Below are positions 11,495-37,136 of a DNA stretch of 64,000 bases, piece by piece. The stretch comes from Marisa cornuarietis. Taxonomy: Eukaryota; Mollusca; Gastropoda; Architaenioglossa; Ampullariidae. The position numbers and the translations under genes were made by a program. The stretch lies in contig SMMW01000568.1 in assembly GCA_004794655.1 (NCBI GenBank), forward strand, positions 1,663,001 through 1,727,000, written 5' to 3'. Numbering within the stretch: the first letter of the stretch is position 1; each line of letters begins with the position of its first letter. The notes beneath the pieces were generated by a model, which saw only the letters and a program-made list of their open reading frames with translations, was not told where the DNA came from and made no database searches.

Positions 11495-11502
11495 TATAAA
11501 AG
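11495..11502 (+). promoter_or_regulatory. TATA box of deaminase gene 1
   Basis: TATAAAAG stands about 60 bp upstream of a good splice donor (gag|gtaagta at 11563/11564). A short non-coding first exon (about 11525-11563) would join the acceptor ttttctag at 13968, 33 bases before the ATG. The layout agrees with TATA boxes ahead of the other array members. Confidence 0.6.
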
Positions 11503-11563
11503 ATGTTTAATCTGAGGCTTGAGGCGAAGAGCCAGGTCTGAAGTACATCAGCATCGACTCGAG

Positions 11564-13968
11564 GTAAGTAACTGCGATGTAGAATTAGTCATAGTCAATG
11601 GAATAGTGATTACAAAGACTAATAATTATAAGGACTGATACATTAGCAGTAGTGGTTCATCACTTTAGAATGCATCACTGATTTCTAGATTAATAGTCAC
11701 TTCCACATGTATTAGTTCACGGTCTGTAAAATACTTCAAAATACTTACTCTCTCAAAATAATATGAAGTTACCGTCCGTGTTTGAAAATGTGAAGATCGA
11801 ATAGAAAGCAAAATTTATCGACGAATATATGTTAGCCGTTCCCTAGCTAAATTTCGATAACGCCATTTTCTGATAAAATATTTCTTGATACTAGCATGAA
11901 GGAATACAAACTTTGCCCGGTGTCGAGATCTTGAAGGCTCTAATTTTTGTTCATTCAAAGTGGTTTACCTGTGTATGACTGATGACTGATGTATGTTGTT
12001 TAGTGTAAAGTGCAAGTCAGCGTGTCAGGATTGTTTTTTTAGATAGTTTAATATGTTTATGTAACTTAATAACCACACACTTACCCTGTAAACCAAGAAC
12101 AGTTGTACATTGTAAAGCTTTTTGTAATGGTACATGTTGACACTTTCTTCTTGTCTCTCTCTATTTCTTACTTTCCTTTCTTTTCAAGTATGGTCATCCA
12201 ACACTCCATACTTATCTTTTCTATCTCTGGCACGGATTTAAGAATGAATGGGGTTTGAACGGGGTTCTGTTAAACTGCACTTACCAAATAAAGAAATTTG
12301 AAAAAAAATATATATAGCTTGATACTAGCATGAAGGAATACAAACAAAACTTAAAGCTTTTGAGAAAACATGAAAGTTTGATAAATGAAAACGAATTATC
12401 GCAAAATAAATGTATTTTTTCACAAAAATGTAATAAAAAAATTATAAGAATTGTAGTATAGATAATTTTCCTTTTTTTGACCCAGTTACTTGAAGTTCAG
12501 TACTTTGTATCAAACAGATATTTATATTTTATCTTCAGTTTTCAAGCAAGGCTATGTTTAATGCAGAATCGTTTACTGTTGAGCATTGATAAAGTTAACA
12601 CACATTTCCTTCATTTTTATTATTTAAAAACCCTTTAACTGTTTCGCCAAATTTATGCCTGCTTTGTACTTGTTTGAGTTGATGGGCTATTTACCTGTCT
12701 GAGTTTTTTACAATTCCTTGCGTGATTATCTTTTGCTACCTCTTCAATGTTTTTTGTTCCTGGTATACGTCTGAATATTCTTGCATACACGTTTTTGTAC
12801 TATTTCCCAACTGAATAGAAAGCAAACACTAGAAAAAACGTTAGAACAACATTTAAGGGGCGCCAAAAGGGGAATTTCTCTCCTACAAGACGCCTATAAA
12901 ATGTTGATCAGTCAGAAAGGAAGGGATGGTGTAGGCTGCACCACAAAGGTATCGAACCGTCACGTGCCTTTGGCTTCCGACACTGATGGTCTAGCCCCTC
13001 GCCAGCCCGCTTCATTTTAGCGGCTTAGAGTTTCCACAATAATTTTAGGGGGGAGGACATTTTACAAAGCAGAATCAAATAAAAAATAGATATACAATCA
13101 TGGCATTGGTGAATGTGTAAACACAATCACATGTAACAACACGTGGAAAAACACCTAGATTGACAATGCTTAAGCCTTAACGAACGTATAATTGGGAGTC
13201 AGCGCTTTAATTTCTTTATAAAGAAATTTACTGCTAACTCAACTACTAATTCAAATATTGTAATATTTATTTCTGCAGCTTTTGTTTATCATCAACAATT
13301 TAAACTTTTGATTGGTTGTCTTGATACTAAGACTTTGTGTGCGATGAGCTCCTCTCGTGGCGCTCCATACACGCCCCATATGCAACGGACATGACACCAT
13401 AAATGCACCAACGCTATTGAAACGAGATACATGTGAAGAAAACTGCCGAAACGAAAGAAATATTTATCATTTAGATTTAGTTGGCTAGAACTGAGAGTCA
13501 TTAGAGTGCATCCTCAGCGGATTGTTAAGCCTATATTTAACCAGCCAATCTTTACCTCACAAGTCTTCAAGCCCTTATCAATAATGCATGCACAAACAGG
13601 TTTCCTCCCACCTCCTCTTTATGTAGTGCGAAATCGTCACTAGGTGAACGAAGCGACAAATTAACCAACTAACCAGTCCCGAAGCTTTACAACAAAGACT
13701 TCTTAACTGGAAGCATATTTTTCAAATTTTCAAAAATGTGACTACGTGAGGCAAAGGTTTGCTTGACAGTCATATGCGCAACAATCAAACACAGTAACAC
13801 TTTTGGCAAGGTGTACGGTTCAGAAGAATCTTGAGTCTTGGCATTGGCGCTACCTTTTGTGTCCTTTTGTCTTCAGTTAGTTCTCTCGTTTTTTTACAGT
13901 CTCATTTTTTAAGTGTTCAAAATCATTTACAAATACTTTTATTTTTGTTGTTTTTACTCCTTTTCTAG
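11564..13968 (+). other. 5'-UTR intron of deaminase gene 1
   Basis: The donor is gtaagt at 11564 and the acceptor is tttctag at 13967-13968. Its last ~200 bp (from tgacagtcat at 13764) align with the intron just before gene 4 (from 33,416), showing common descent of the two genes. It also contains a SINE head at 12.9 kb. Confidence 0.55.
12900..13020 (-). repeat. tRNA-derived SINE head
   Basis: On the minus strand the segment reads ggcgaggggctagaccat followed ~30 bases later by acggttcgatacc, an A-box/B-box pair like those at 7.3 and 47.95 kb. The body differs, so this may be another subfamily or a truncated copy. Confidence 0.5.
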
Positions 13969-14001
13969 ATTTTGCGCAGTTGAAGTTCTCGGTGCATCAG
14001 C

Positions 14002-15204
14002 ATGGGAAGACTACAGATAGCTGTGGGGTTATCCCTGGTCTTTCTGGCAACAATCTGTAAACAGACATATGCAGTTCTTCCAGACGTGAATCAGTACACA
14101 CCGCAGGTTGTAAAGCCGCTGTTTGATCTGATCCGCGATTATGGACTCATCGAAAAAAACAAAAGTGGCAAGGCTTGGAATCAATATTTAGTCGTATTAA
14201 TAGCTAGTCATGACGAAATTATTACTCCCGTAAAAAACGAAAGTAACCTCCGTGAACACTTTGTTGGCCGAGTAATCTGCCTGTTAAATGAACACAACGA
14301 TTTATTAGTGGAGATTCTGAACTCAAATAAAAAAGCACACGGCGAAGTAAGATTTATCTTCGACACAAACATCTCTAACAACATGCTTAATACGTTCAGA
14401 AAAAAATACCCTAAAGAAAGTCCAATTATATTGATGTACTCTTACTACATTCCCTGCGCCGGACTTGGTTATCTTGGATATAGTTGTTCAGAAGAATTAG
14501 CGGTGTACGCCACGTACAACTGGATGCATTTTGGTCTACTCGTCGCTTTCTCTAAAAGTTTTGAAAAGACTGATGATAATGCCGCTGTTCGGTTTCTAAG
14601 GCTCGGGGGCATTCCAACTTTCCGCTACACTAATTCTAATTCAAAAGTGAATCTCGAGCTCGTTCCAGACACTAACAGCAATTCCAACGACTACAACAGA
14701 TGGCGCTCAGTGGCTTTCTTACCGAAATTCTTCGATTGCCTGGTCAATAATGTTCAAGATAGTTGTCTAGGAAACACGATTGACAGAAATAAAATTCTTG
14801 CATTTTTCGTGAACAGTGCCGCTTACGAATGCTTTAAAACTATGTCTTTTCGTTGGAGAGCGGCGAAAGCAAATGAAATACAGAACTCTTTCAACGAATA
14901 TCTTCAGAAGAATATTGGCTCGGACTGCAAACAGTGCACTCAAACGTGTGCGGCTCTGAAACAACAAGCGGCTCAGAAATGTGTTGAAACCTCGGTTAGT
15001 AATTCTCTAGTTTCGGGAGAGCTGGGACATTATTCAAACCCTCTAGATTACACTTGGAAGGTGTCAAGAGATGAAGAACTTTTCAAACTATTTCCTGTAT
15101 CTTATCAGACGACAATGGTACAAGCTGGGAAAAATGTATCCTGTAAAGAAAAGTCCCTCACCCCGCAGTCACTGTGTACCAAGAAAGGGGCACAACTGCT
15201 TTGA
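14002..15204 (+). CDS. Candidate secreted AID/APOBEC-like deaminase, array gene 1
   Basis: This 400-residue single coding exon starts at 14002, 33 bases after the acceptor at 13968. The N-terminus is a signal peptide (hydrophobic residues 6-18, likely cut near TYA-VLP). The deaminase signature is H113-G-E115, then the strand IILMYSYYI ending in P151-C152, and a second Cys at 162 (C-x9-C). Residues 177-186 (HFGLLVAFSK) and 194-208 (AAVRFLRLGGIPTFR) follow the strand-helix-strand order after the zinc helix in AID/APOBEC proteins. The C-terminal half has paired cysteines (C246, C255, C277, C309, C312, C316, C327, C381, C392) conserved in the paralogs, which suits an extracellular fold. By family knowledge it would convert cytidine to uridine in nucleic acid. 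The assignment is from motif and fold order only. It could instead be an inactive or differently specialised zinc protein. A possible polyadenylation signal aataaa lies at 15572. Confidence 0.75.
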   Translation: MGRLQIAVGLSLVFLATICKQTYAVLPDVNQYTPQVVKPLFDLIRDYGLIEKNKSGKAWNQYLVVLIASHDEIITPVKNESNLREHFVGRVICLLNEHNDLLVEILNSNKKAHGEVRFIFDTNISNNMLNTFRKKYPKESPIILMYSYYIPCAGLGYLGYSCSEELAVYATYNWMHFGLLVAFSKSFEKTDDNAAVRFLRLGGIPTFRYTNSNSKVNLELVPDTNSNSNDYNRWRSVAFLPKFFDCLVNNVQDSCLGNTIDRNKILAFFVNSAAYECFKTMSFRWRAAKANEIQNSFNEYLQKNIGSDCKQCTQTCAALKQQAAQKCVETSVSNSLVSGELGHYSNPLDYTWKVSRDEELFKLFPVSYQTTMVQAGKNVSCKEKSLTPQSLCTKKGAQLL

Positions 15205-15690
15205 ACTGGTTGTAGCTCTTAAAGCGTTATCTTTGTGGGCGGGGGGTGGGGGCTATAATTGAAGTTCATGACCTTTGTGAAGATTCTAAATTGTTACAAA
15301 ATTTCAATCAGATGCGGAATTTTGATCATATTATTCTAAAATCTCTAAGCATATAGTCCACGATTTTTTACAGCCATTAAATGGCATCGGATTGCTTTAA
15401 AGAATGCGGGGCTTCAAAGATTATTTGATAAATAAGATATGAAGAAAAATATTTATTTAAAACTGGACAAAGACAAAGACAAAAATTCTTTATTTCAGTA
15501 GGCTCATGCCCATAACCGATGTTGTGGGAGTGTGTGTAGGGGGAATCAAAAATGAAAGTACACAATACATAAATAAACTGTCCTTACTTCATTAAAAATA
15601 CAACATTCTTTAATGTGCTATTTAATTATATCAGTAGTTCGCAAATTATTTGTTTTCTCTAATCTGCAGTGCTTTATACAGATAGTAGGC
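15205..15690. other. 3' flank of gene 1
   Basis: AT-rich 3' UTR or intergenic DNA. Candidate polyadenylation signals are attaaa near 15376 and aataaa at 15572. No coding frame stands out. Confidence 0.4.
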
Positions 15691-16469
15691 AGCATTTTAG
15701 ATTAAATTTAAACAGTTGCTTGCAAATAAAATAGATAAACGAAACTGAGAAGGATTCTTATAGAACTTTTCAGGAATGTACAGTTGTCGTAGGTCTTTAT
15801 AATTTGGGCACACGAACACAAAATGTAACTCAGTCTCTTCACAATCGCAATTGGGGCATTTTAACGAAACAGTGGACAAATTGCTGTAACGCTGCTTATG
15901 GCAATTTATGTTTGTAACTCCTAGCCTAAACCTTATTAGTGAATTTCTAATAGCAATATGTTTAATGTCAGTTAAGTAAGTGCTTAATTTTAAGGAGGAC
16001 TTAAATGAGCTGTAGAATGAAAATCTATCACTACTAGATATTTTGCTATGACAGTCTTGCTCAAACCAGTCTGTAAGTCTAAGATTAAATTTTCTTAAGA
16101 ACAGCTTAACATTGCCCACCCCCTGAGATTCCCAGACACCCATACTTATAAAGTGTTAGCATAATGTTGTTAACCCAAGTGGCCTTGTTATTATTCTGCA
16201 TATTTAGCAACATGTTAAACACTTTTTTGGGAGTCTACTGGAAGGCAGATTTGCAACTTTCAGCCAGTATGGTAGCAATCTCACATAAGCATTTACAAAC
16301 AATGGGTATCTTCCACATTCACCGTAAACCATTCCATTTGAAATTCTTACTGTCACATTCAAGAAACGTATCATTTGCAAATAAATGGACTCTCTCAATA
16401 ATATTGTTGTCCGCACACAGACCCCACACCTCAGAACCATACAGAAGAATTGGCTGAATTTGTGAATCG

Positions 16470-16470
<1 letters not shown>
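15690..16470 (-). mobile_element. 3' end of a non-LTR retrotransposon (LINE), degenerate
   Basis: On the minus strand, about 16470-16210 encodes a segment with ILLYGSEVWGVC, the motif following the reverse transcriptase domain of many LINEs. It is broken by a frame change or stop. Then 16143-15697 (148 codons) encodes the usual C-terminal piece with the Cys/His cluster KCPNCDCEETELHFVFVCPNY. The N-terminal endonuclease and RT core are absent, as expected for a 5'-truncated insertion. Confidence 0.75.
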
Positions 16471-18375
<1,905 letters not shown>

Positions 18376-18379
18376 TCTT

Positions 18380-18385
18380 TATAAA
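18380..18385 (+). promoter_or_regulatory. TATA box of deaminase gene 2
   Basis: The motif tctttataaa is shared with the promoters of gene 3 (26980) and the pseudogene (32256). A non-coding exon would run from about 18410 to the donor agca|gtaagt (exon end 18504) and join the acceptor ttccag at 18683. Confidence 0.65.
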
Positions 18386-18689
18386 CTCCGGTCGGCCCTT
18401 TCGTCTGATTTTCTCTGGATGCAGACGTCAGTCATTGTACCTGGACATCCGCCGGCCGTCGCGTAACACATTTTCAGGCACTTCAACAGCTTTATACTTC
18501 AGCAGTAAGTAAAACACGTGCCACAGCTTTCCAACAAGAAACCTTCAATTTCACACACCTTTCGCTTAAAAGTCGTTGTTTCCACATGTGTTTGTAAGTT
18601 TTTCACCCTCGTTTCAACTTTGTTTTATGGTTTTTCTTTTATCAGATGCACCTACAATATGTTTTCTTTTAACTTTGTTCCAGAGAATC

Positions 18690-20078
18690 ATGTCTTCACA
18701 ATGTCAGTGCACCAGCATACAGACGCTTGTAAAATTAACTGTGGGATGTTCACTGCTCCTTCTGTCTTTATTTTGCCAACAGTCGTTATCAACTTTCGAG
18801 TATTCACCCAAAAATGTCAAACCTCTGTTCGATCTAATGCGGAAGTATGGAGCTGAAAAGAAGAACGAAAGCTCGGGAGGACGCCAGGTAAAACAGTATT
18901 TGGTCGTACTAATGGCTTCAAATGATGAGATGCAAAAGCCCCCAGTAAATCTGAAAGATGTAAACTTGACAGGCCACATGGAGGAGCACTTCCGTGACAG
19001 ATTGATATTTCTGCTGAATGAAAAGCATACAAATCCGCATTTCAACCCCAGACGCAAATTGCACGGGGAAGTTAATTTTATTGACAACAAAATGATTGAA
19101 CCTATGAACATCGCATTCCGAAAAAAATACCCAGGCCAAAGTCCTGTCGTTCTGATGTACTCTTACTACATCCCATGCGCTGATATTCAGGATCTTGGCT
19201 ATTCGTGCTCGGAAGAGACAGCAATATTCGCCATACACAACTGGATGAACTTCGATCTTCTGGTCGCTTATTCTACAATTTATAACGGGACTAGCAGAAG
19301 TGTAGGAACAAATGCAGCAAATGCTAAAGAGTTTTTGCAGCTTGCTGGCATTCCCGCTTTTCAATACCAAGGCAAAGCTCTGGTTCCAGCTTATAGCGTC
19401 GCTAGCGCTGACAAGGAAAAGAAGGTTCACTCTGTCACTTTTCTCCACGTTCTCTTCGAGTGTCTAGTCATGTCTATCAAAGATGGATGCATGCCAGACA
19501 GCGAAGAAGACAGGAAAGCAATCATTGCACTCTTCGTCAATCAAATTGCCTATGAGTGTTTTAAAGACTTTAACAACACGCAATTTGCATGGAGAGAGAA
19601 AAACAGAGAAAATATAACCGAATGTTTCGTTGCACGTTCTAAAGCTAAGGTTGGTTCAAGCTGCAAACTTTGCCGTGGTACTTGCATGGATTCCAAGAAG
19701 AACGTCAGCGAAAATTGTGTTTGGGCCTCGTTTGATAAGTCTTTGGTCCCCGGGGAGCCAGCAGATCCTTCTGATCCTTTTAACGACACGTGGAAGGTTA
19801 CTACAGATCCCACAATCAGATTCAACACAATCTTTCGAGAAAGCCCTGAAATTAGAGTGACAGCCGTTGGTCGGGAAGTTTCCTGTAAAGACAAGAACTT
19901 CTCACTTCCGTCACTATGCACGGTGTACAAAATCTCAAAAGGTAGCAAATCTACCTTATCTCGACAAGGTAGCCCCCCCCTGAGTCATCACGACGGCGAA
20001 ACCTCCGTGCCTCGTCTTGATAAGGTAGCAGCCATGCGACATCCTAACACGCAGAAGTCGTCGAGATCGGCCATTTGA
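18690..20078 (+). CDS. Candidate secreted AID/APOBEC-like deaminase, array gene 2
   Basis: The frame is open from 18576, but a splice acceptor (ttgttccag) ends at 18683, so I take the ATG at 18690, giving 462 residues. This start gives a signal peptide with a hydrophobic core at residues 15-28 (KLTVGCSLLLLSLF). Signature residues are H125-G-E127, P162-C163 and C173, again C-x9-C in the same IPCA...YSCSEE setting as gene 1. The Cys-rich C-terminal half and the closing VSCKD...SLC motif are conserved. After that motif there is a ~50-residue tail that begins Ser/Arg/Gln-rich (LSRQGS) and then crosses a run of eight C. Beyond it the DNA resembles the gene 4 tail minisatellite read one frame off. 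A polyadenylation signal aataaa is at 20312. Function is inferred as for gene 1. Confidence 0.75.
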   Translation: MSSQCQCTSIQTLVKLTVGCSLLLLSLFCQQSLSTFEYSPKNVKPLFDLMRKYGAEKKNESSGGRQVKQYLVVLMASNDEMQKPPVNLKDVNLTGHMEEHFRDRLIFLLNEKHTNPHFNPRRKLHGEVNFIDNKMIEPMNIAFRKKYPGQSPVVLMYSYYIPCADIQDLGYSCSEETAIFAIHNWMNFDLLVAYSTIYNGTSRSVGTNAANAKEFLQLAGIPAFQYQGKALVPAYSVASADKEKKVHSVTFLHVLFECLVMSIKDGCMPDSEEDRKAIIALFVNQIAYECFKDFNNTQFAWREKNRENITECFVARSKAKVGSSCKLCRGTCMDSKKNVSENCVWASFDKSLVPGEPADPSDPFNDTWKVTTDPTIRFNTIFRESPEIRVTAVGREVSCKDKNFSLPSLCTVYKISKGSKSTLSRQGSPPLSHHDGETSVPRLDKVAAMRHPNTQKSSRSAI

Positions 20079-21145
20079 AAAGGCTGAAAATGTTTTAACA
20101 CACTTTATCCCATTTCCAATCATGTTAACAAAGTTTCGATTGTTTCAAACTCAAGTTCTCTTCCAAGGCCGATGAGGAGCCAGCCACGGACTTGTTCAAT
20201 GTTTTGAGCATCTGTATAAAGCTTTATACTACCAAGCACATGGGACTTCAGAGGGACACTATATTTTATGTCAAGAACATTCAATGGTGCCAGTCAGCAG
20301 TATTTCTTGACAATAAAGTAAACCACACAAATTATACAAGCGACAGACATCCCTGACAGACAAGCAATCACCTATGTTTACCTACTCTGCAAATAACAGC
20401 TTTATTGGTCTAATTACTCAGAGTATTTAAGTCGAGGTGATGTCATAGTATTGTCTCGTGAATTATTCTAAATGTTTTGAAAATTATTTATTTGTGATAC
20501 TGTTTCTTTAAAAAATGTATTAAAAAATGACGTACAGCAAGAATCGTATAAAATCATATTATAACATCAAGGAACACATCTGAAATCACAGTGGAAACTC
20601 CAAGTGAATTATAAGCACAGTTTCAAGTAATGCTTGTAAGGGACGTTAATGCAACGCTGAAACATCATGAAGCCAGTATGTTTTCAGCCACATCATCAAG
20701 GCCGGCAGTTGTGAAACGAGAGTAGGACGTTTGACCAGGGAAAAATTGTGAACTCAAACAAAAGTGTTTTGCTTCCTTTTAGTGTCGAGACCCTGTGATA
20801 ACTAATTCGTGTTATTTTATCCCAGGACACCTTTACGGCTGCTTTATAACTACGGCTTCAGGAGTAAAACAATATCTGCGAGGTCTGGACATCGCTTTAT
20901 AATTATGGAAACAAGACGGTTGTCCTAGAGTTTCCCATGTTCTCACAGGGCTCACTCGTAGGACACCAGGAACCTCTACTTTCAGTCAAGATGGTCTTCT
21001 TTGGCCATGTCAAGGGACGACTCACTGACAGTGCAGAGACTTACCCTCACTTCATAACTACCGCCATTGGCGACAAAATCGGAATATGATTAATTGTTCC
21101 TTTGATCATCTCTTTGCACCTTAATTATCACTTTTCCTTCAAAAC
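20079..21145. other. 3' flank of gene 2
   Basis: 3' UTR followed by intergenic DNA. The segment cttaccctcacttcataa near 21,041 matches arms of a short inverted repeat at 50,290-50,360, suggesting a small MITE-like repeat. No gene is seen. Confidence 0.35.
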
Positions 21146-21902
21146 GTCAATTACAGTTAAGTTACGCTTCTTTAAACCTCAACATTTTTGTAAGAGTAAA
21201 TAAATCTCAGAGACTGATCGAAAAGGGAGACAAACGGAGAGGTGCTTGTGTGATCCTTGTGACGCTTCAATGCCAAAAGGAGGCGAGGGACATATTTTGT
21301 CATAAGAATCTCATGTTCTTAAGAACGTTTTATTCGCTTTTTCATAACTTTGAATTGAATGTAAATTACAGCACGCGTTGTCTAATGATAAGTTAAGCTT
21401 CTATTTGTTAGGATGGGGTATTATTTCCCTTATACGTGTTAAGAAGCAGGGCTAGTCGCCCTTTACGGGATGCTTGTGAAAGCAGGATTGTATGGTTTAT
21501 GAAAGGACGTGTAGTGAGCGAAGTAGTCACGGTAGCCCCCTAAGCCAGGTGATCAGATTCTAGTTATTCCCAAACCAGACGTCTAAAGAGAAATACACTT
21601 TCTGTGTGAAATTGACAGTGGAATCAATCTAATTCCTTGCCAAGTCAAGGAATTAGTTGGGGGTCGACAAGACGGTGAACGATGATATCGTTGAACCGGA
21701 GTATTGAAGTATTCTGTCCGAAGGCTTCGAAACATCAATTACAGTTAAACTATGCTTCTTTAAACTTCAACATTTTTGTATGAGTAAATAAACCTCAGAG
21801 AGTGATAGAAAAGGGAGACAAACGGAGAAGTGATTGTGTGATCCTTGTGAAGCTTCAATGCCAAAAGGAGCCGGCGGACATATTTTGTCGAAGGAATCTA
21901 AT
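21146..21902. repeat. Pair of ~165-bp direct repeats
   Basis: Copy 1 (21146 to about 21310) and copy 2 (21734 to about 21902) share tcaattacagtta, aacatttttgta, aaaagggagacaaacggag and cttcaatgccaaaagga with roughly 90% identity by eye. The stretch after copy 1 (ttttattcgctttttcataa, about 21,327) recurs at 23,245. Confidence 0.8.

Positions 21903-23392: not shown

Positions 23393-23462
<70 letters not shown>
23393..23462. repeat. (GT)n microsatellite
   Basis: About 35 GT units. It sits downstream of gene 2 in the same relative order as the GT runs after genes 1 and 3. Confidence 0.95.
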
Positions 23463-23463
<1 letters not shown>

Positions 23464-24849: not shown

Positions 24850-25003
24850 CAGTGGCGTAGGAACCGGGGGTGGGGGCAAGGGTTTCAGCCGCCCCCCCCC
24901 CAAAAAAAAAGATGCTGGGACGGCAAGAATGTGAATATCGTTCATTGTCAGCATGGAGCTGCCTCCCCCCCCCCCCAAAGCCGAGCATCTTCCTACGCCA
25001 CTG
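24850..25003. mobile_element. 154-bp MITE-like element, copy 1
   Basis: It begins cagtggcgtagga and ends with the exact inverse tcctacgccactg, a 13-bp terminal inverted repeat. Internal poly-C runs flank a core (aagatgctggg ... aatgtgaatatcgttcattg) that is shared with the copy at 54.84 kb. No coding capacity. The CAGTGGCG ends suggest a non-autonomous hAT-like element; I see no clear target duplication. Confidence 0.75.
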
Positions 25004-26896
25004 CCTGATGTTCTCTTTTTCAAGGAGTGCAGCACTGCTTCATTTGAATGTTAGTCATGATTTGATTACCGCTCAAACGTTTGCATGGGCCTGTGATTCG
25101 ACCTGCCAATCAGATTTTTCAGGAGAGATAAAAGGCGGCAGGAAACGAAATTTAGACTTCGCCCTTCTCATGCTGTGCCTTAGACACGGTAATCAGATGA
25201 CAGCTTACTTACCCTGGCATTAGAAAGTGGGATTATCTTCTTTCTGAAGTTCACCTTCGTGAACTTACGGCTTGATGGTGTCGCTTAAACTTTCGCTGTA
25301 AACTTTCTGCAGCGACGCCTGAAGCTCGATGGCGGAAGATGACCAAGTGGAAGATAAGCTTGTCGTCCGCGGGCCTTGGCTCAGGAACTTTGTCGGTAAA
25401 TCTGCTGTTACGACTGTGCACAAACCATCCCAGCTTTGAATACATGTAAGAAGTCGTTCTCTCTGACAAGGTCATGCTCATGTTCCTCCCTAAGTTAAGT
25501 CTAATTCTGCAGAATATTTTTAGGTTCACCACTCTGCCATGTCACTTCGCGTGGTCTGCACTGGATGCCAGACACCCGATCATGTATTCTTTCGTAACAC
25601 TTTTACCCCGACTAGGTTTGATCGCGCAACCCCAAACTCAGTTCCCAGAAACCTTTTAGGTCATGAGTGGGCAACCTTATCAAAATTATCAAAATTATCA
25701 ACTTAAGTATTAGTCTACTGTATCTGGTCATACTGTAGTTTCGTCACAGTGGGTTAAATTAACACTTGTAACATGTACACCTCCATCCTTACCTGGTACT
25801 GACTGTCGTCTGAGTCACTGCAGTGCAGGCCGCAGGCAGAAGAAGAGAATCAGATGTGTCTGTCGGCCCGTCATGTATGTGTTCTGTCTGTCCAATATTG
25901 GACTTTATTTTTTTGTCCCTCAAAATTTACGCTGTTGTTATGATTCAATTAATATAAAGCTATGTTACTACGAAAAAAGCTCTAAGCGGTTGTCTTTGCC
26001 GGTCCAGACTAAATGGTTTCACTTGCCGCAAAAGGTCCGCAGGCCAGATGTTCCCAATTCCTGTCTTAAGTCATAGCTGTTCAATATATGTATATTTTTT
26101 TACTCTAGTTCCATCCAACAAGCAACGACACACGCTCGTGCATACACTACAATGACATTTGGATATACTTAAATTTTCAGTGAATCTCGAAATATGCTTG
26201 CAGCTTAATGGCTGTTTTCCCCCCTTGCGTATGTGCTCTACATAAACCATATGAATAAATATTAATGTATTCAAGTGATATCGCTGCCTTTTGAAGTATA
26301 CATAGAAAAGCAGTATTTACAAAGTGCTGTTTCATCAAATTGATCATAGTGAAAACGAACCAAATACAATGTTTTTTGTTTAGTAGTCTGGGTGAGTAAT
26401 TCCCGATGAGGAGGGCCGAGAGGTGAGCTGGAGGGAGGATGTCAGCTTCAGATCTTAAAGTAGGATATTTTAGGAGCAGGTATTTAGGTTAAGGTTAGCG
26501 AACTGACATTTATGCTTATTTGTTTGTAGTAAAATTAATAGCTATTGTTGTAGGAAGGACAGTTTTAGGTTATAAATTATTTGTGTTATTTATCCAATGT
26601 AATCGTTTCTCCGTCCCGTTCCGTTCTATGACCTTAAACTTATCTAGCCACTCTCTGTTTCACGAAACGAAAGTGTGGGGCTTCCAGTGTATCGGGTAAA
26701 AGGAGGACAGCCACTTATGTCAGGCAGAAAAATGCCCAGATAATTCTTTTCTTTCTCTCTCTCTTTCCTACTTATTCTGGAATGGAGGCGCGTCTCCCGG
26801 TACGGCAGGTCGAGGGGTCCCCAGATAATTTGTGTGGGGGGGGGAGGGGTGATATCGTGGGGAACCGGGTAGAGGTAGACTAACCGAAACACTTTA
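25004..26896. other. Upstream region of gene 3
   Basis: No gene is seen. 25,085-25,140 (gattcgacctgccaatcagat) has a match at about 31,807-31,840 upstream of the pseudogene. 25,490-25,560 (aggttcacca...catgtcacttcgcgtgg) has a match at 37,800-37,865 downstream of gene 4. Both are traces of segmental duplication of the array unit. Confidence 0.45.
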
Positions 26897-27117
26897 TCAC
26901 CACGACCAGGAACTTTCAGACCACCATGATCCGGAATTCCTTGATCACCAATGAATGGTTACAGAACGTTCGTGGTCTTTATAAAATGGAAGGTCACTGC
27001 TGGAGGTCTGGCCTATCGTTTGTCTCGTGTTGCGTGAGGACGCCAGTGCTTGCACACAAACTGAAACCCTCCGTGAGACCAGACACTTTACTAATGTTGA
27101 CATATTTCAGGAGTTAA
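26897..27117 (+). promoter_or_regulatory. Promoter and first exon of gene 3 (duplicated block)
   Basis: The block atcaccacga...gaccaccatgatccgga...tctttataaaatggaag is repeated at 32173-32382. The TATA box is at 26980-26986. The non-coding exon ends about 27072 at a donor ccc tcc|gtgaga, which matches tctgc|gtgagt in the other copy. The acceptor before the coding exon is ttttttgcag, ending at 27291. Confidence 0.65.
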
Positions 27118-27313
27118 AATAGATGTATCAAATGAAATGAGTTACTATACATATGTCTACATGCTCACAGCAGTTTCTAATTTTGAAAATTTAACCCGTT
27201 TATCGGGATTTGGAAATGTTTTCTCGATTTCTTACTTACTGCTAACTTCTTGTTTGTTTGTTTTTTTGGTTTTTTTTGCAGATTTTGTGCTCAGTCTGTC
27301 AGTCAGTAAAGAA

Positions 27314-28519
27314 ATGGTAATGCTATAAATTTTTGCGAGATTTTTCTTCTTTTATCTGGTTACATTTTGCGGACAAACACATTCATTCGTGGAGGATGTG
27401 AACAAATACACATCACAGGTTGTCAAGCCTCTGTTTGATCTAATGCGCGAATATGGATTGCAACTAAAAGATGAAAGGAAAGCCGAAATGTGCACGAAAA
27501 AGCAGTTCTTGGTCGTATTAATGGCCTCCCCTGAAAAAATTTTAAAATTTTCACTAAACATGAATAGTAGAAATCGGATGGAAGAGTTCAAGAAACACTT
27601 CAATCAAAGACTTGTGTGGCTGCCGAATAAGAAGATGCACAATTTGCAGGAATGGAATTGCAAGCGCGCACTGCACGGTGAAATAAGTTTTATTCAGAAC
27701 GACTTTAAAACCATGCTTGGTGTGTTCAGTAATCAATTCTCTAAGCAAACTCCTGTCGTGCTGATGTACTCTCACTTCATTCCATGCGCTGATGTTCCGG
27801 ATCTTGGGTACTCGTGCTCAGAAGAGCTGGGGGTTTTCGCCACCCATGAGTGGAATAAGATCGGCCTGTTAGTCGCTTTCTCTACAACTTTCAAACGAAC
27901 AGATGCCAACAAAGCAGTTCACTTTCTGCAGCTCGCGGGCATTCCAGGATTTCGATACGAGAATAATGGTAATAGCGAGAAATTTGTTCAAGCGTATCAA
28001 GTCAAGAATGCTGACGATAAAGAAAGATGGCACTCTGTGACTTTTTTGCAGAATTTCTTCTCCTGTCTCGAGGAAGAGGTTTCCCATGGCTGTCTACCAG
28101 CCAAACATCAGCCTGTCTTTGCATTCTTTGTCAACTACGTCGCCGACGCTTGTTTTAGAAACATGGACTTTAAATGGAGAACTAAAAGCAGAAGCATCAT
28201 AACAGAATGTTTCAGAAACATAATTGAGCAAAATATTGGCTCGAATTGCAAAATATGCAAAAAGCCGTGCGCATCGTCGAAGAAAGAAGTTGCTCAGCAA
28301 TGCGTTGTTAAGTCATTTGACAAATCCTTAGTCCCGGGAGAACCAATCAAGCCGTTCGATCCTCTCAAAGACTCCTGGACAGTTATGGGGGACGTGCCTC
28401 TTAATAAAATCTTTTCCCAGTTGGGTCAAAACAGTCTGACGGAAGATCCTCAGAAGCCAGGATGTAAAGACCGGTCCCTATCAATGAAATCCCTTTGTAC
28501 AGATCTGATCAAACCATGA
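27314..28519 (+). pseudogene. Candidate secreted AID/APOBEC-like deaminase, array gene 3, with in-frame stop at codon 5
   Basis: The expected start is the ATG at 27314, which aligns with the starts of genes 1 and 4. Its fifth codon is TAA (27326-27328), where gene 1 has CAG and gene 4 CAA. After that stop the frame is open to 28519. It first encodes a hydrophobic signal-peptide-like stretch (RFFFFYLVTFC, then QTHSF at the expected cleavage region). The mature part then runs with H-G-E, IPCA, the second Cys in YSCSEEL (C-x9-C), the GLLVAFS strand and all C-terminal cysteines. About 376 codons are intact, so the stop is recent, a sequencing error, or bypassed. The next in-frame ATG (27443) would give a protein without a signal peptide. 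I call it a pseudogene provisionally. Confidence 0.65.
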
Positions 28520-29804
28520 GTCCTGACGTCATCAAAAACCGTTTTGGCTGCTCAACTCTCTCCATATAGTGCTTAGCTTTAAGTGTGCCTAAACTGAGTT
28601 CTCTATCGGAGCTCCGGGTAAGGAGTATCTAGATCGTTTTCTTGATTTCTCTTTAGAATATATTAAATTTTCTTTAATATATCAATCAACTGCTACAATA
28701 TCGTCAACAAAAAATGAATTAAATAAGGACCACGTTATTTCAAATTCCACAAGAGTGCTTTATATAGTAATGTTTGCATTTGACATTGTTAAATATATAA
28801 CTTTTTTCCCGTTTTTAGTCAATTTTGTGTATATTTAATATCTTTATTAATATTCAACAAAACAGGAAACTGTTTCTTATTCTGAAATTTATTATTATTT
28901 ATTGTACTATACAATTCGTTTGTAGCTCCATAATCTCGTGTGCCTTGTATACCTCCTAGTTCACAAATTAGAAAGCATAGAAGTCTGCTGCACATCTGAT
29001 GCTTAGAGCTGGGAAACGGGACCATGCCACTACTCTCAGTCGTTTTCTGCATTAGCTGACCGTCAGTGCTTGCATTTAGTATAAGTTTTCTTCTCCTGTC
29101 ACCAAAACAATAAGGTGTTATCACCGGCTTTTGAGCTATGGTGCAACAAAGCAGTGAAACTCCTGTTTCCATACCCGCACCAATTGAGTATTTTACAACT
29201 CATCTCCATGATCCCTATTCCTAGACACATTTCACTCAATGCTATTAACCTATTCTCTCTCTCTATCTATCTTTATTAGTCTGTCGTGCAGATATCACTT
29301 TGTTCACTACTGTTCACCTAACTCTTGGTCGTTACTGTTACCTCTATGTCTTCGCTGTCTTTTAGACTTCATCTTCATTGCTCTCCATCTTCCACTTTTC
29401 CCTGTAGTACACACTGATCTAATTTTTGTATCAAGCACTGCGTGCATGCTCCGTAAACCTGATTTTGCCCTCCATACATTGTACATATTTTATATAATTG
29501 TTATTAGTCATATCACTCTGAAATAACTAAAATATTCTAAAAATGGGTCTTTAATGAATGTATTTTCTATCACGTATTCTATTTAGTTATAAACATCTCT
29601 TGTTACACATATTATATATATATATATATCCATATAGAGAGAGAGAGAGAGAGTGGTGATAAATACAAGGCTTATTTCATTAAGATCGTTTCGTTTGTAT
29701 TTTCTGTCGGTTTTGTCTTCTCTGAGCAATTAAAAGACATTGGATTTTACCAGCGAAAGTTCTTATATGTGTATGCACGTGTGTTCGTGTTTGTGGGTGC
29801 GCGC

Positions 29805-29805
<1 letters not shown>
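28520..29805. other. 3' flank of gene 3
   Basis: AT-rich DNA with short (TA)n (about 29,617-29,630) and (GA)n (about 29,637-29,654) runs. 29,690-29,745 matches the sequence preceding the GT run after gene 1. No gene is seen. Confidence 0.4.

Positions 29806-29882
<77 letters not shown>
29806..29882. repeat. (GT)n microsatellite
   Basis: About 38 GT units downstream of gene 3, the third such run in the array. Confidence 0.95.
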
Positions 29883-29886
<4 letters not shown>

Positions 29887-32172
29887 TTTTATGATGATGT
29901 TTATATACTTGTATTTCAAGAACGGAGTAGGGGAAGACGTTATTCAGTTATGGTCTTAGAAGTTGAGTAATAGCTTGCTTCTTGATGGTTCCCACACTAT
30001 GCCGATAAAGAACAGCCAGCATTACTCCACCTTCGCTGGGATCGCTGACAAAGCCGAGATCCCTGACCTGAGACAGAGTTGCAGGGCGTTGATTACACTT
30101 AACCAGTTTCCTTCGGCCTGACTGATCTCTTCCTTGTAAGCGCCTGCATCACAATGTCCATTAACCGACCTCCATCTTTCTAGTTAGTGCGCAGAACGTC
30201 TCCCATTGCTTTCCCCCCGACTTGTTAATAATGATGGTGATGATGATGATGCAGTGAATTTATATGGCGCCATATTCCAGTCCTATGGACAGGTTCATGG
30301 GGCTTTACAAAAAAAGGCAGACAGACAGACAGACAGACACGGATGCACGCAACATAACATGAAAGAGTGTTGTCTATAGAATGCCAGATAATATGAATGA
30401 TATCTACCAAGAAGCTGCTCCAGTGTGCGCAAATCATTTGAAAAACTGTCATCTAGGCTGCAAACGTTCCTGTCCACACTACAAGTCCAGTCATAGAACG
30501 GATCTAAAAGGGTTTTTTTTCCTGGCTTGCCTGCAGAATTTGAGAAAAACCAAAGTCATCTTGAAGAGAATTTCTTGTGTGACCTACACGAAGACTGTCA
30601 TTGCTAGCCACATCAGTCTTCATTACCTAGAACTAGCTCATCGTTCTCCTTTATGCGGTGACTATCAAGACAGCTTCAATTTTAGGATATTTTAACTTTT
30701 AATTAAGCAGTGGCACAAGCTAAAAAGAAATGGCCGTGATATTAAAGAAAATAGCTATTGCCAGAATAAACTAAACTTGCCTACGAGATAGACAAGTGGG
30801 GCTTCCTTTTCTCAATCGCCATCGAGTGGGAGAAAACGACTTCCACTGAAAATAATACAGCTAATGTGATATGCACTTGAATATCACTAGTAAGAGTTTG
30901 CAAGTTAAGGCTGTGTGAACTTAAAAGAAAGCTAAACCATTTTATAACTAAGATCTTTTGTTAACGCTTTACGGTTAGGCAAATTAGATACTTAGACAAA
31001 CAAGCTTGATTTTAAACTTTCCAGTACCCCTTGTAACCGATGCAACAGAGAGGGTACTTTTTCAAAACAAAAAAAATTGACTGCCTTGGCTGCACAAAAG
31101 AATTTATCATGAACATTGATAAGCTATCTGAAAGGCCAAGAAGCATTTTGATGACTTTTATTGTAATAGGCTTTTATATTTTATATCTATCTATCTTTTA
31201 AAAGATCGCCTCCATGTCTTCAGACAAGATTACTTCTGTGGACATTATATCGATACATCAGTAGACATACATCACACATCAGTGAACATAAATCATCGTT
31301 ACACATTAGTTTCTTACAATAAGTCTAGTCACACGTTGAGTACTCGCAAATCATAGGTCAAAATTTGAGCTAGACCGCCCAGACTCTTGTGCTTCTACAA
31401 TATGTTAAAAGTCACATATTTATCAGGGTATTCTGTTAGTCTGCGATCTTTGCACTGACGAGAGAGAGAGGGAAGTAAGTGTTTGTTTGTTTGTTTGTTT
31501 GTTTGTTTGTTTGTTTGGTGTGTGTGTGGGGGGGGGGGTGACACATATGCAAGTACAAGAACACGGACTATTTTCTGACAATACTATATAAAGAATTGTA
31601 TTTGATCGAATGTACTTAAATTTAAATGTAATCATTTAAAATAATTTCGCCTTGTGTGATCCAATCTACTGTACTGCAATGCAAACTTTTTTTTCAATCA
31701 GACTGGCTGGCAATGAGAATAACAGCCCACCCATGCGTGGCACACACATCAGTATCGTCGGGGAAAGTGAGATTGCGTCCTGCTCAAATCTTTCCTGGGC
31801 GTTGGACTCGACCTAGCCAATCAAATTTTGGGGAGGTTAAAACCACAGGATGTTAACGCGTGATCGGATTAAAACGTATTTCCCCTACCAACTTTTATCA
31901 GGAAATCTGTTGTCAATATTTTACTCTAGTTCTAATCCACCAGTACAACCAAGCCCTTGAGTCCAAACATAGCAAAGCATCTGCCTCTCACAGTTCACCC
32001 ATCCATCAACCAGTCAACCAGATAGCAATTACTGCCGTCATCAACCTTAGTGACATATCATCCCTTCTTCCCGCCCCTAGCATCTACCTTGCAAGTGCAG
32101 CTCAAATTACTCGGAATCGTACTCGAGAGTTACAGGAAACAAACACTCTGACATAAACGAATAGAAACATTC
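29883..32172. other. Intergenic DNA between gene 3 and the pseudogene
   Basis: 29,990-30,230 is the right copy of the duplication at 24.06-24.32 kb. (GACA)n lies at about 30,321-30,341 and (GTTT)n plus poly-G at 31,482-31,539. 31,787-31,840 (ggactcgacctagccaatcaa) matches the region upstream of gene 3. No gene is seen. Confidence 0.45.
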
Positions 32173-32382
32173 CATCACCACGATCAGAAACTCTTAGACC
32201 ACCATGATCCGGAACTCACTGATTACCAAGAACGATTACAGAATGTTGCAATCTTTATAAACTGGAAGATTACAGTCGGTGGCCTGGCCGATTGTCTGTC
32301 TCAGTAAGAAGCCAGTGCTCGCACACAAAGATCTGCTGGAAGCATCTCTGCGTGAGTCCAGGTATTTTAGTAAGGTTAAAAT
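32173..32382 (+). promoter_or_regulatory. Duplicated promoter and first exon upstream of the pseudogene and gene 4
   Basis: The block matches 26897-27117 over ~200 bp. It has a TATA box at 32256-32261, the conserved cagtgctcgcacacaaa in the exon and an intact donor (tctgc|gtgagt, exon end about 32351). The coding copy next to it is dead. No other promoter of this type is seen before gene 4, so the block may now drive gene 4 by splicing to the acceptor at 33614. Confidence 0.55.
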
Positions 32383-32504
32383 GACAACGAGTTATCGGAA
32401 ATTTTGTAGAAAGTGTCTATAAGTCTAATTGCTCTAAACAGCTTATTCTTTTAATAATGTTTTTCGATTTAAAAAAAAATGTTTCTTGATTTTTCCTGTT
32501 TCAG

Positions 32505-33334
32505 TTTTGTTCCAAAATGTGTCCTCCGTAGGTCAAAACGGGGATGTTAAAAATATCTGTGAGCTTTTTGGTTTCTTCTTTATTCTACATTTTGCCGATA
32601 AACTCACTAAGTCATGCCTCAAATGACAAAATACATTTCACAGGCTGTATAGCCTCTATTTCTTTTCATGTACAAATATCAATCGAAATGAAGATCGAAA
32701 GGAGAAAATGAAATGGGCACGAAAGATCAGTTTTCGATCGTGTTAATGGCTTTCTCTGAAGAAATTCTACACAAACTCCACTGAACAGAAATATCGGAGC
32801 GAAAAGTAGGGAAACGACTTCAGAGATTTAGTAAAGTGACCGATATAATTCCAAGAGCAAAAACTGCTAACGACCGCTGAAAGGGAAAATAAATGATATA
32901 AAACAATACAGTAAAAAATAAACTGCATTAGCTCGAACACAACACCCGAGAGAAAGCCCAATCGTTCTGGTGCTTATCTCACTTCGTTCCATGAGCTGAC
33001 GTTCCAAACCTCAGGTAAACGTTGTGGGAATAATTAGGGGTGTTTGCAACATGTGAGTGAGGATCGGCTTCAATGGGGCTTTTTACAATATTTATATGAT
33101 ATAGACATACTCGGGAAATAATGTCAAATATTCAGTTCGCTTTCTTGTGTCTCGACGGGATTCCAAGTTTTCTATACAAAAATAATTCTAAAAACGAGAA
33201 TCGCGTGCAAGTGAATGGCCTCAGGGATGCTGACAAAGAAAGAGGGATGTCGTTCTGGGACCTTCTTGCAGAATATCTTTGGCTGTCTCGAGGCAAACGT
33301 TTCCCACCGCTGTCTACCAGCCAAGTGAAGTAAT
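32505..33334 (+). pseudogene. Degenerate deaminase copy, closest to gene 3
   Basis: After an acceptor-like ctgtttcag (to 32504), the sequence aligns with gene 3 from the signal peptide to about codon 240 of the gene 3 frame. It carries many frame changes and stops. Where gene 3 has the catalytic H-G-E, this copy reads AAA GGG AAA (32880-32888). Where gene 3 has TGC for the first zinc Cys, it has TGA (32992-32994). The region 33121-33330 still reads almost in frame (FLCLDGIPSFLYKNN, then DADKERG). Homology stops abruptly near 33334, where sequence related to the gene 1 intron begins. Confidence 0.85.
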
Positions 33335-33654
33335 ATCATGTACTCAGTCCACGTATTATGTCAGCTACGTGCGCAAAAGGGGCCATGACTACGCTCTGTC
33401 TGGAAAAGTTTTAAATGACAGTCATATAAACAAATACCTCATACAGCATTATATTATACAGGGTGGCTGGTGCAGAATAGCCGAGACCTTTGGCACTGGC
33501 TACCTTTTATGCGGTTTTTCTCTCTGTTACCTTTCTAGCTTTTTGCACTTACCTTTTAATTTTTTTTTAAATCGCTTGCATATATCACTTTTGCTGTTTT
33601 TACTTCTGTTTTAGATTTTGCCCAGTTGAAGTTCTCGGTACATCAGCCATCAGC

Positions 33655-35349
33655 ATGGGAAAACTACAAATGGCTTTGGGATTTTCCCTGGTCGTTTTGG
33701 TGACAATTTGTGAACAGACATATGCATTTCTTCCGCACGCGAAAGACTACACACCGGAGGTTGTACAGCCACTATTTGATCAGATGCGCTTGTATGGATC
33801 CATCGAGAAAAACAAAACTAAAAAAGGCGAAAAATGGAGCCAGTATTTAGTTGTTTTAATAGCTTCGCATAACGAAATTATGACAGCCCAAAACATAGAT
33901 GTTCTGTTCGAGAATCGCTTTAAAGGCCGAGTAAACCTTCTGTTAAATCAAAAAGATTCTGCAGCAGCCGAGAGGCGTAGGTTAGATTCACGTCACCAAG
34001 TACACGGAGAAGTAAGATTTATCTTCGGCGAAAGCATCTCTAGCAAGATGCTTAATACGTTCAATGATAACCACCCTAACGAAAATCCAATCGTACTGAT
34101 GTACTCTTACTACATTCCCTGCGCGTGTATTCCCAATGTTAACTATTCATGTTCAGAAGAGTTAGCGGTGTGTGCCACCTACAACTGGATGAACTATGGC
34201 CTACTCGTCGCTTTCTCTGAAACTTTTACTAGAACTGCTGCAAGTGGAACTACTAGGGGAACTAATGAGGAGGCTGCTAATCAGTTTCTCACGCTTGGTG
34301 GCATTCCAACTTTTAAATACTCGTCTAATGGCATGGATCCTAAAAATGTAGTGGATGATGCTGACAATAGAAACAGATGGCACTCTGTGACTTTCTTGGA
34401 AAATTTCTTTGTCTGTCTCGACAGGAACGTTGATAGCGGCTGTCTAGCGAACGGACCCGAGGACAGAAAAGCAATCATTGCCTTCTTTGTCAACCAAATC
34501 GCCTACGATTGCTTTCGAAACATGAATTTTCGGTGGAGAAAGAAAGAGGAAGACCATATAACAGGATGTTTAATTGACCGCATTGAGAACAGGATTGGCT
34601 CAGACTGCAAACGTTGTAATGGCGACTGCGCGGCGTCAAAGAAAGAAGTTAGCAGAACTTGTGTTCGTGACTCCTTTAACAAGTCTTTAGTCCCCGGAGA
34701 GCCAGAGGATCCTTCTGACATTTTTAACGTCGCTTGGAAGATCACGGAGGATAAAACGCTTGATGAAATCTTTTCTGGTGCCCCCGAGGACAGACTAATT
34801 GGTGCCAGTCGGAATGTCTCCTGTAGAGACCCAACATTCATGCTGCAATCATTGTGCACGGTGTCCGCATGCGGCCCTGCCTTGTCACGCCAAAGTAGTA
34901 GCCGTGCCTCATCACCACCAGGTAGTAGTCGTCCCTCATCACAAGGCAGTAGCCGTGCCTCATCACCACAACGTAGTAGTCGTCCCTCATCACAAGGTAG
35001 TAACTCTGCGTCATCACCACAAGTTAGTAGTCGTCCCTCATCACAAGGCAGAAGCCGTGCCTCATCACCACAACGTAGTAGTCGTCCCTCATCACAAGGT
35101 AGTAGCCGTGCCTCATCACCACGAGGTAGTAGTCGTCCCTCATCACAAGGTAGTAGCTCTGCCTTATCACATCAAGGCAGTACCCCTGCCTCATCCCTAA
35201 TAAGCAGGATTACGGATTGGATATGGTATTACTGTTGCGAATGCTATAACCGGGCTTACAATTATTTAATAGGCAATCAATTAGTCGCTACACAGAAGCC
35301 TTTGTTGAGAATCTCGCATGAAAGAAAGCAGCAACGCAAAATAGCATGA
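33655..35349 (+). CDS. Candidate secreted AID/APOBEC-like deaminase with Ser/Arg/Pro repeat tail, array gene 4
   Basis: 564 residues in one coding exon. The start is 40 bases after the acceptor ttttag (33614), in a leader nearly identical to that of gene 1 (gcccagttgaagttctcggt). The signal peptide core is residues 8-18. Signature residues are H117-G-E119, P155-C156 and C166 (C-x9-C), with an extra Cys at 158. The conserved Cys-rich half ends near residue 401 (CRDPTF...SLC). Then follows a tail unique to this copy: about five 17-residue repeats of the type SSRPSSQGSxxASSPQx, then an aromatic/Cys patch (WIWYYCCECY) and a basic C-terminus (ISHERKQQRK). The tail might bind nucleic acid or anchor the protein, but nothing proves this. 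It is the closest paralog of gene 1 in leader and intron. Function is inferred as for gene 1. Confidence 0.75.
   Translation: MGKLQMALGFSLVVLVTICEQTYAFLPHAKDYTPEVVQPLFDQMRLYGSIEKNKTKKGEKWSQYLVVLIASHNEIMTAQNIDVLFENRFKGRVNLLLNQKDSAAAERRRLDSRHQVHGEVRFIFGESISSKMLNTFNDNHPNENPIVLMYSYYIPCACIPNVNYSCSEELAVCATYNWMNYGLLVAFSETFTRTAASGTTRGTNEEAANQFLTLGGIPTFKYSSNGMDPKNVVDDADNRNRWHSVTFLENFFVCLDRNVDSGCLANGPEDRKAIIAFFVNQIAYDCFRNMNFRWRKKEEDHITGCLIDRIENRIGSDCKRCNGDCAASKKEVSRTCVRDSFNKSLVPGEPEDPSDIFNVAWKITEDKTLDEIFSGAPEDRLIGASRNVSCRDPTFMLQSLCTVSACGPALSRQSSSRASSPPGSSRPSSQGSSRASSPQRSSRPSSQGSNSASSPQVSSRPSSQGRSRASSPQRSSRPSSQGSSRASSPRGSSRPSSQGSSSALSHQGSTPASSLISRITDWIWYYCCECYNRAYNYLIGNQLVATQKPLLRISHERKQQRKIA
34881..35190 (+). 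repeat. 51-bp coding minisatellite in gene 4
   Basis: About five full copies of a 51-bp unit (agtagtcgtccctcatcaca... then ...cgtgcctcatcaccacaacg) plus partial ends. It is in frame and encodes 17-residue Ser/Arg/Pro/Gln repeats. Copies differ at few positions, so the tract is recent and probably length-variable. Confidence 0.9.

Positions 35350-36913: not shown

Positions 36914-37136
<223 letters not shown>

What the first reader, a model, noticed from the sequence alone, without database searches (positions are those of the whole stretch)
11495..35349. Tandem array of candidate secreted AID/APOBEC-like (SNAD-type) deaminases
Four paralogous plus-strand ORFs and one pseudogene lie in ~24 kb. 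Seen in sequence: signal peptides in genes 1, 2 and 4, plus one in gene 3 downstream of a stop; H-G-E; a hydrophobic strand ending I-P-C; a second Cys; then GLLVAFS-strand, helix, GGIPxF-strand, which is the AID/APOBEC element order. Established: secreted AID/APOBEC-like deaminases (SNADs) and lineage-specific expansions have been reported in metazoa, including lophotrochozoans, and linked to immunity. Inference: this is such an expansion, perhaps a mutagenic defence secreted into body fluid. Activity, substrate and expression are unknown.
Basis: partly seen in the sequence, partly recalled or inferred. Interest (0 to 1): 0.92.

Follow-up and report, generated by a model that had tools for sequence, protein, structure and literature searches.

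The report
Snail secreted APOBEC-like enzyme cluster
A freshwater snail carries a row of related genes for secreted proteins that look like distant cousins of the DNA/RNA-editing AID/APOBEC enzymes, with an unusual but strictly kept active-site spacing; whether they edit anything or fight infection is untested.

Summary
The array is real: four paralogous plus-strand genes, 40-49% identical, plus one pseudogene. Signal peptides fit genes 1, 2 and 4; gene 3 has a TAA at codon 5. Further copies lie about 420 kb away; homologues occur in Pomacea and, distantly, Mytilus. In all 12 aligned proteins the putative zinc-site His, Glu, Pro and two Cys are invariant, spaced PC-x9-C. Gene 4's best Pfam family is SNAD1 (E 3.3e-4, but 21.1 bits against a cut-off of 25); only 2 of 14 whole proteins match it. 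Changing H, E, P or the first C costs 4-6 bits. Shortening the inter-cysteine loop brings up AID/APOBEC families; motif-keeping shuffles do not (0 of 10). A secreted AID/APOBEC-like, SNAD-like family is well supported; strict SNAD1 membership fails on score and spacing. The fold was not tested (structure prediction off). Activity, substrate and immune role are inference; APOBEC4, also with a lengthened spacing, showed no deamination when assayed. Verdict: a molluscan variant of a known kind.

The parts
11495..11499 (+). TATA box of gene 1 (TATAAAAG)
   Evidence: sequence; inference, no RNA data
11520..11563 (+). probable non-coding first exon of gene 1 (start uncertain), followed by splice donor GTAAGT at 11564; second exon from about 13969
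   Evidence: sequence; the bases after the acceptor (ATTTTG...) are shared by genes 1, 3 and 4; no RNA data
14002..15204 (+). gene 1: 400 aa, signal peptide, deaminase-like domain, Cys-rich C-terminal region
   Evidence: 66% identical to Pomacea LOC112563183; no Pfam match as a whole protein, SNAD1 15.8 bits on its core
14338..14346 (+). gene 1 H113-G-E115 (putative zinc His and proton-shuttle Glu)
   Evidence: H and E in 12 of 12 aligned proteins
14452..14487 (+). gene 1 P151-C152-x9-C162 (putative zinc cysteines)
   Evidence: 12 of 12 with exactly nine residues between
18690..20078 (+). gene 2: 462 aa from Met 18690 (ORF open from 18627), signal peptide, deaminase-like domain, 51-residue basic tail
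   Evidence: closest to P0001, 65%
27314..28519 (+). gene 3: TAA at 27326-27328 in the signal-peptide frame; the body is open from 27329, first later ATG 27443 (358 aa)
32164..33325 (+). pseudogene, closest to gene 3; similarity begins in its upstream region
33655..35349 (+). gene 4: 564 aa, signal peptide, deaminase-like domain (best SNAD1 match), 162-residue tail with Ser/Arg/Pro repeats, net charge +19

Best explanation
The array encodes secreted, zinc-dependent deaminase-fold proteins of the AID/APOBEC superfamily. They form a molluscan clade that is SNAD-like, with its own zinc-loop spacing (HxE-x31-35-PC-x9-C), a disulphide-rich C-terminal region and, in several paralogues, a polycationic tail. 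Proposed mechanism: the protein enters the secretory pathway (signal peptide seen), folds with disulphides (inferred from co-lost Cys), binds zinc through His113, Cys152 and Cys162 with Glu115 as proton shuttle (inferred from invariance and profile alignment), and deaminates cytosine in single-stranded nucleic acid held by variable loops and, in some copies, by the basic tail (inferred). The most likely use is against microbial or viral nucleic acid outside cells or after uptake (inferred; least certain). Copy number turns over by tandem and inverted duplication and loss (shown).
For: Pfam SNAD1 is the best family for gene 4 (E 3.3e-4; core alone 24.1 bits), P0002 (15.1 bits) and the gene 1 core (15.8). 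The gene 4 match runs to profile position 195 of 213. Point changes lower the gene 4 core from 24.1 bits to 18.3 (H), 19.8 (E), 19.0 (P) and 18.7 (C1); the reversed core has no SNAD match. Deleting the six-residue loop lifts the gene 4 core over the cut-off (26.2 against 25), raises gene 1 from 15.8 to 21.6 and brings SNAD1 up for gene 2 (17.7) and Mytilus (15.3); with seven residues removed seven families match gene 4, all AID/APOBEC though all below their cut-offs; with the six out, C2 to Ala costs 5.0 bits. Shuffles of the six-deleted gene 4 core that keep H, E, P, C and C: 0 of 10 match any AID/APOBEC family. H, E, P, C, C are invariant in 12 of 12 proteins of A5 from snails and a mussel and present in the distant copy L006. 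Signal-peptide-like N-termini: 10 of 12 rows of A5 by my reading (the gene 3 row begins after its stop; the Mytilus one is weak). C255/C309/C312 are lost together in P0005-P0007, C316 there and in Mytilus. dN/dS is 0.29-0.49 between window paralogues (ratios). Basic tails in part of the family.
Against: No natural sequence reaches the SNAD1 cut-off, and only 2 of 14 whole proteins (gene 4, P0002) match it at E up to 10; genes 2 and 3, L006 and Mytilus do not match it even as cores, and gene 3 does not after loop removal. In the natural gene 4 core, changing the second Cys raises the score by 1.1 bits, so the profile does not see it as the second ligand. The loop deletion is partly circular because it places a Cys where the profile wants one; for gene 4 the gain is only 2.1 bits and the matched stretch shortens to end soon after the second Cys. 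No deaminase chain of the PDB is found by sequence. No structure model exists. SNAD1 searched against the whole own genome gives nothing at E 0.001, gene 4 included. APOBEC4, with PC-x6-C, showed no deamination in the assays of PMC4889046. dS is 0.8-1.7, so dN/dS is rough, and differences private to one gene show little third-position skew.
Confidence: 0.62

Rival explanations
1. A secreted pseudoenzyme or structural/binding protein on an AID/APOBEC-derived fold: the site is kept for zinc or stability, or the two Cys form a disulphide, and there is no deamination. Function could be recognition or sequestration of nucleic acid.
For: Non-canonical PC-x9-C spacing, APOBEC4 precedent of a lengthened spacing with no detected activity, many conserved Cys and basic tails.
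Against: Glu115 and His113 stay invariant in 12 of 12 proteins down to 25% identity; a pure scaffold would not need the Glu. The H-x-E losses seen are in the pseudogene (no HGE in any of its three frames) and in the fragment L008 (HDD).
Confidence: 0.25
2. The proteins are a mollusc-specific secreted family unrelated to deaminases, and the weak SNAD1 match is chance.
For: 12 of 14 unaltered whole proteins have no SNAD1 match; unrelated weak matches (DUF483, DUF348, D5_N, Copine) also occur.
Against: Gene 4 E 3.3e-4 library-wide, same register in P0002 and the gene 1 core, score loss at the catalytic residues, AID/APOBEC families alone emerging in gene 4 when the loop is shortened, and 0 of 10 shuffles.
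Confidence: 0.1
3. An egg-fluid (perivitelline) or reproductive secreted protein family rather than an immune one; apple snails have other duplicated egg proteins.
For: Apple-snail egg fluid holds duplicated secreted proteins such as PV1 (PMC13336756, passages); nothing here shows haemocyte expression.
Against: Little either way: no paper in the held library names the four Pomacea loci searched, and the main text of the egg-proteome paper has no occurrence of deaminase. The Mytilus relative suggests that the family predates apple-snail eggs.
Confidence: 0.2

Closest known systems
[quoted passage not shown] poikilothermic vertebrates)
   Same: Signal peptide, HxE, strand ending in PC; best profile match, score depending on H, E, P and the first Cys
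   Different: Cys spacing PC-x9-C against C-V-x-x-C in fish SNAD1 (PMC11004436, passages); below cut-off; in gene 1 about 170 further residues after the domain, matching no family; molluscan
SNAD4 (Pfam PF18750; reported in sponges)
   Same: Weak match of the gene 4 core with seven residues removed and of the L006 core with six removed
   Different: No match without altering the loop
APOBEC4 (Pfam PF18775)
   Same: Weak match of the unaltered L006 core (E 0.072); lengthened spacing HxE-x30-PC-x6-C and a C-terminal lysine stretch (PMC4889046, passages)
   Different: Mostly cytoplasmic when expressed in HeLa cells (start of abstract), not secreted
Pomacea canaliculata LOC112563183, LOC112563181, LOC112561295 and a Mytilus galloprovincialis hypothetical protein
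   Same: Homologues with the same motif
   Different: Named uncharacterized or hypothetical in the databases; one (LOC112563181) has HWE in place of HGE

Membership tests
SNAD1 (Pfam PF18744) | profile score at or above the curated 25 bits | tested here: not met
   best natural protein 21.1 bits (gene 4); its core alone 24.1
SNAD1 (Pfam PF18744) | second zinc Cys with three residues between it and the first (CVxxC) | tested here: not met
   nine residues between in 12 of 12; spacing of SNAD1 from PMC11004436 (passages)
SNADs in general | N-terminal signal peptide | tested here: met
   hydrophobic N-terminal segments in genes 1, 2 and 4; gene 3 interrupted by TAA. Read by eye and hydropathy; no dedicated predictor on hand
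[quoted passage not shown]
   C-x2-C-x3-C in all four window genes (C309, C312, C316 of gene 1), absent in P0005-P0007, two of three in Mytilus; exact definition of the published cluster not seen
AID/APOBEC superfamily | HxE and PC-xn-C zinc motif | tested here: met
   n is 9, longer than the 2-4 given for classical members and the 6 of APOBEC4
AID/APOBEC superfamily | deaminase core with helix between strands 4 and 5 | tested here: inconclusive
   sequence order agrees by eye; SNAD1 alignment of gene 4 reaches profile position 195 of 213; no model
AID/APOBEC superfamily | cytidine deaminase activity | not testable with these tools
   needs biochemistry

The most novel reading that the evidence does not exclude
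A fast-evolving multigene family of extracellular AID/APOBEC-type mutators in molluscs, with a rebuilt zinc loop (PC-x9-C) and polycationic tails that capture nucleic acid, acting in haemolymph on microbial or viral nucleic acid: an invertebrate humoral mutagenic defence that links sponge SNAD4 and vertebrate SNAD1.
Probability: 0.22. Interest if true: 0.85.

Novelty: new variant of a known kind. Interest (0 to 1): 0.56.

Why it matters
The 2024 SNAD1 paper states that nothing was known of SNAD biochemistry and places SNAD1-4 in poikilothermic vertebrates, ray-finned fish and sponges (PMC11004436, introduction). A molluscan clade with intact catalytic residues would fill the gap between them. 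It also gives secreted proteins whose activity can be tested directly, making the open question of what a secreted nucleic-acid deaminase does testable outside fish.

Tried and rejected
Sequence searches of the PDB gave nothing related (none; one chance match to MsrA at E 1.4). NCBIfam gave nothing relevant (two weak beta-lactamase matches of the Mytilus protein). A second deaminase domain in the C-terminal half was tested by profile comparison and rejected (probability 0.1%). SNAD1 against the whole own genome gave no match at E 0.001, but nothing rang in the 14 controls either, so this says little. Searches of the own genome with the L006 protein, P0009 and three other AID/APOBEC families did not complete. 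Rfam found nothing in the window. Papers: searches (12 of 12 listed; 20 of 141 listed; none; none; 12 of 12 listed; none; 5 of 6 listed) showed no title or opening of an abstract that describes this molluscan family; I read passages, and one introduction, not whole papers. Krishnan et al. 2018 is not held, so whether it already lists apple-snail members is unknown. The three Aplysia APOBEC3-like genes of PMC9334734 (passages) were not compared. I considered that gene 3 may use another upstream exon to bypass the stop: possible (an AG follows the stop), untested.
Full report
What is there. The window is part of contig C441 of a 534-Mb genome. The closest named protein is of the apple snail Pomacea canaliculata (66% for gene 1), so the host is probably another apple snail; no tool named it. 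Four open frames on the plus strand, of 400, 483 (462 from the likely start), 358 and 564 codons, are paralogues of 39.8-48.9% identity. Chance does not give this: one 400-codon open frame has a probability of about 5e-12 at 40% GC, and four share a conserved sequence. Differences are most frequent at third codon positions in all six pairs, and dN/dS is 0.29-0.49 (ratios), so the proteins are constrained but evolve fast. Two cautions: dS exceeds 1.2 in five of six pairs, and differences private to one gene show little third-position skew (gene 1 35/26/34, gene 2 32/32/44, gene 3 36/33/41, gene 4 22/25/17 at positions 1/2/3). By these counts gene 3 does not stand out from its sisters despite the TAA in its signal-peptide frame.

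Gene structure. In genes 1, 3 and 4 the coding exon is preceded by an acceptor-like AG followed by ATTTTG. The protein-coding part reads as one exon in all four, broken in gene 3 by the TAA.

Family and turnover. A search of the own genome with gene 4 found 8 places: the four genes, the pseudogene, two further intact copies at 1240151-1241266 (-) and 1248229-1249344 (+), and a fragment at 1257259-1257492. The two distant copies encode 431-residue proteins, 99.8% identical, in an inverted duplication whose arms are 97-98% identical over pieces of 4570, 1600 and 647 bases. Protein searches gave four relatives with the window genes, the same four again when these were added, and five with the distant copy, among them a Mytilus protein at E 1.9e-19. 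In the tree of 13 rows, gene 1 pairs with Pomacea LOC112563183 (support 100/98), gene 2 with P0001 (100/99) and the distant copy with P0005 and LOC112561295 (100/99); genes 3 and 4 have no resolved partner, and 4 of 10 inner branches are open. Left out of alignment A5 and of the tree: P0008, a short gene model that lacks the zinc-site region; L006 was not in A5 but was aligned in A3. This is ordinary birth-and-death evolution.

Zinc site. In the 12 proteins of A5 the columns H113, E115, P151, C152, C162, E164 and E165 (gene 1 numbers) are invariant. All 12 have exactly nine residues between the Cys, and so has L006. From H-x-E to PC there are 31-35 residues; the script's 77 and 73 for P0003 and P0007 come from an earlier HGE in those proteins, and counted by hand on the alignment they have 35 and 34. 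One Pomacea protein has HWE; the fragment L008 has HDD.

Profile evidence. Pfam: gene 4 matches SNAD1 at 21.1 bits, E 3.3e-4, cut-off 25; genes 1, 2 and 3 have no match as whole proteins. P0002 has 15.1 bits; the other eight relatives and L006 have no SNAD1 match. So 2 of 14 whole proteins match. The hand-made consensus has 17.9 bits. With 156-residue cores, gene 4 has 24.1, gene 1 15.8, L006 a weak APOBEC4 match (E 0.072), gene 2 only an unrelated one (DUF348), and gene 3 and Mytilus none. In gene 4 single Ala changes cost 5.8 (H), 4.3 (E), 5.1 (P) and 5.4 bits (first C); other changes cost 0.1 (E168) and 2.1 (S151) and gain 0.6 (W178); the second C gains 1.1. So the profile recognises the first four catalytic positions but not the second Cys in place. 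If six residues between the Cys are taken out, giving C-x3-C as in fish SNAD1, gene 4 reaches 26.2 bits and SNAD2 also appears (15.4); the second Cys then contributes 5.0 bits. Against this, the gain over the natural core is 2.1 bits and the matched stretch shortens from residues 15-137 to 15-76. Five out gives 24.3, seven out 22.2 plus SNAD4, NAD1, APOBEC_N, SNAD2, APOBEC3 and APOBEC2, all below their cut-offs. Six out elsewhere gives no match (upstream) or 20.9 (downstream). Gene 1 rises to 21.6, gene 2 to 17.7 and Mytilus to 15.3; gene 3 stays without SNAD1 (APOBEC4 13.1 and an unrelated DUF483 only); L006 gains SNAD4 (16.2) and APOBEC2 (13.0) beside APOBEC4. Unrelated weak matches also occur (DUF483, DUF348, D5_N, Copine, SOG2). 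Because deletion puts a Cys where the profile expects it, part of the gain is by construction. Ten shuffles of the six-deleted gene 4 core that keep H, E, P, C and C in place match no AID/APOBEC family, so the surrounding sequence matters too.

Secretion and C-terminal region. N-termini of genes 1, 2 and 4 have a hydrophobic stretch followed by a plausible cleavage site (read by eye, no predictor on hand). Cys 255, 309 and 312 are absent together in P0005-P0007, and 316 there and in Mytilus, as expected of disulphide partners. The C-terminal 160 residues match no family and are not a second deaminase domain. Tails beyond the last conserved motif are basic in gene 4 (+19 in 162), gene 2 (+6 in 51), L006 (+12 in 45), P0001 (+8 in 49), P0005 (+15 in 45), P0006 (+17 in 56) and P0007 (+6 in 29), but short or near neutral in genes 1 and 3, P0002-P0004 and Mytilus.

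Comparison with what is known. SNAD1 is described in poikilothermic vertebrates, SNAD2 and 3 in ray-finned fish, SNAD4 in sponges; SNAD biochemistry is stated to be unknown (PMC11004436, introduction and passages). SNAD1 has been found in nurse-shark plasma, and the authors suggest uptake into infected cells and antiviral editing (PMC9207270, passages). Krishnan et al. 2018, the founding paper, could not be read; from memory its abstract reports AID/APOBEC-like deaminases in lophotrochozoans and a secreted branch, so parts of this clade may already be listed there. APOBEC4 shows that the superfamily tolerates a longer spacing (HxE-x30-PC-x6-C), with no deamination detected in that paper's assays (PMC4889046, passages).

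Verdict. My estimates: AID/APOBEC-like and secreted, likely (about 0.85). Catalytically active, more likely than not (about 0.6). Immune use, plausible and unproven (about 0.45). Not filed as SNAD1, since its score cut-off and Cys spacing were tested and not met; best called a molluscan SNAD-like clade.

Noticed in passing
window 10936-11058: Near-perfect hairpin: 53-nt arms, 98% complementary, 17 nt apart, looks like a small foldback mobile element; a genome count did not complete.
   Followed up: partly
window 36908-37165: Long GAT/ATG trinucleotide repeat, open in several frames.
   Followed up: no
window 1579-4800, minus strand: 1074-codon Ser/Lys-rich frame whose end nearest 4800 matches the TFIIS helical bundle domain (Med26, E 4e-7), Elongin A-like by guess.
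   Followed up: partly
window 45595-45912 (+), 61127-61891 (-): Frames matching a short-chain dehydrogenase (E 1e-8) and a GMC oxidoreductase (E 6.4e-20) lie downstream of the array.
   Followed up: partly
G000:C441:1236025-1253659: Recent inverted duplication carrying two near-identical paralogues (L005, L006); assembly artefact not excluded.
   Followed up: partly
window 34814-35200: Gene 4's repeat tail is also open in a second frame, which reads as a His/Val/Pro-rich repeat (128 codons).
   Followed up: no
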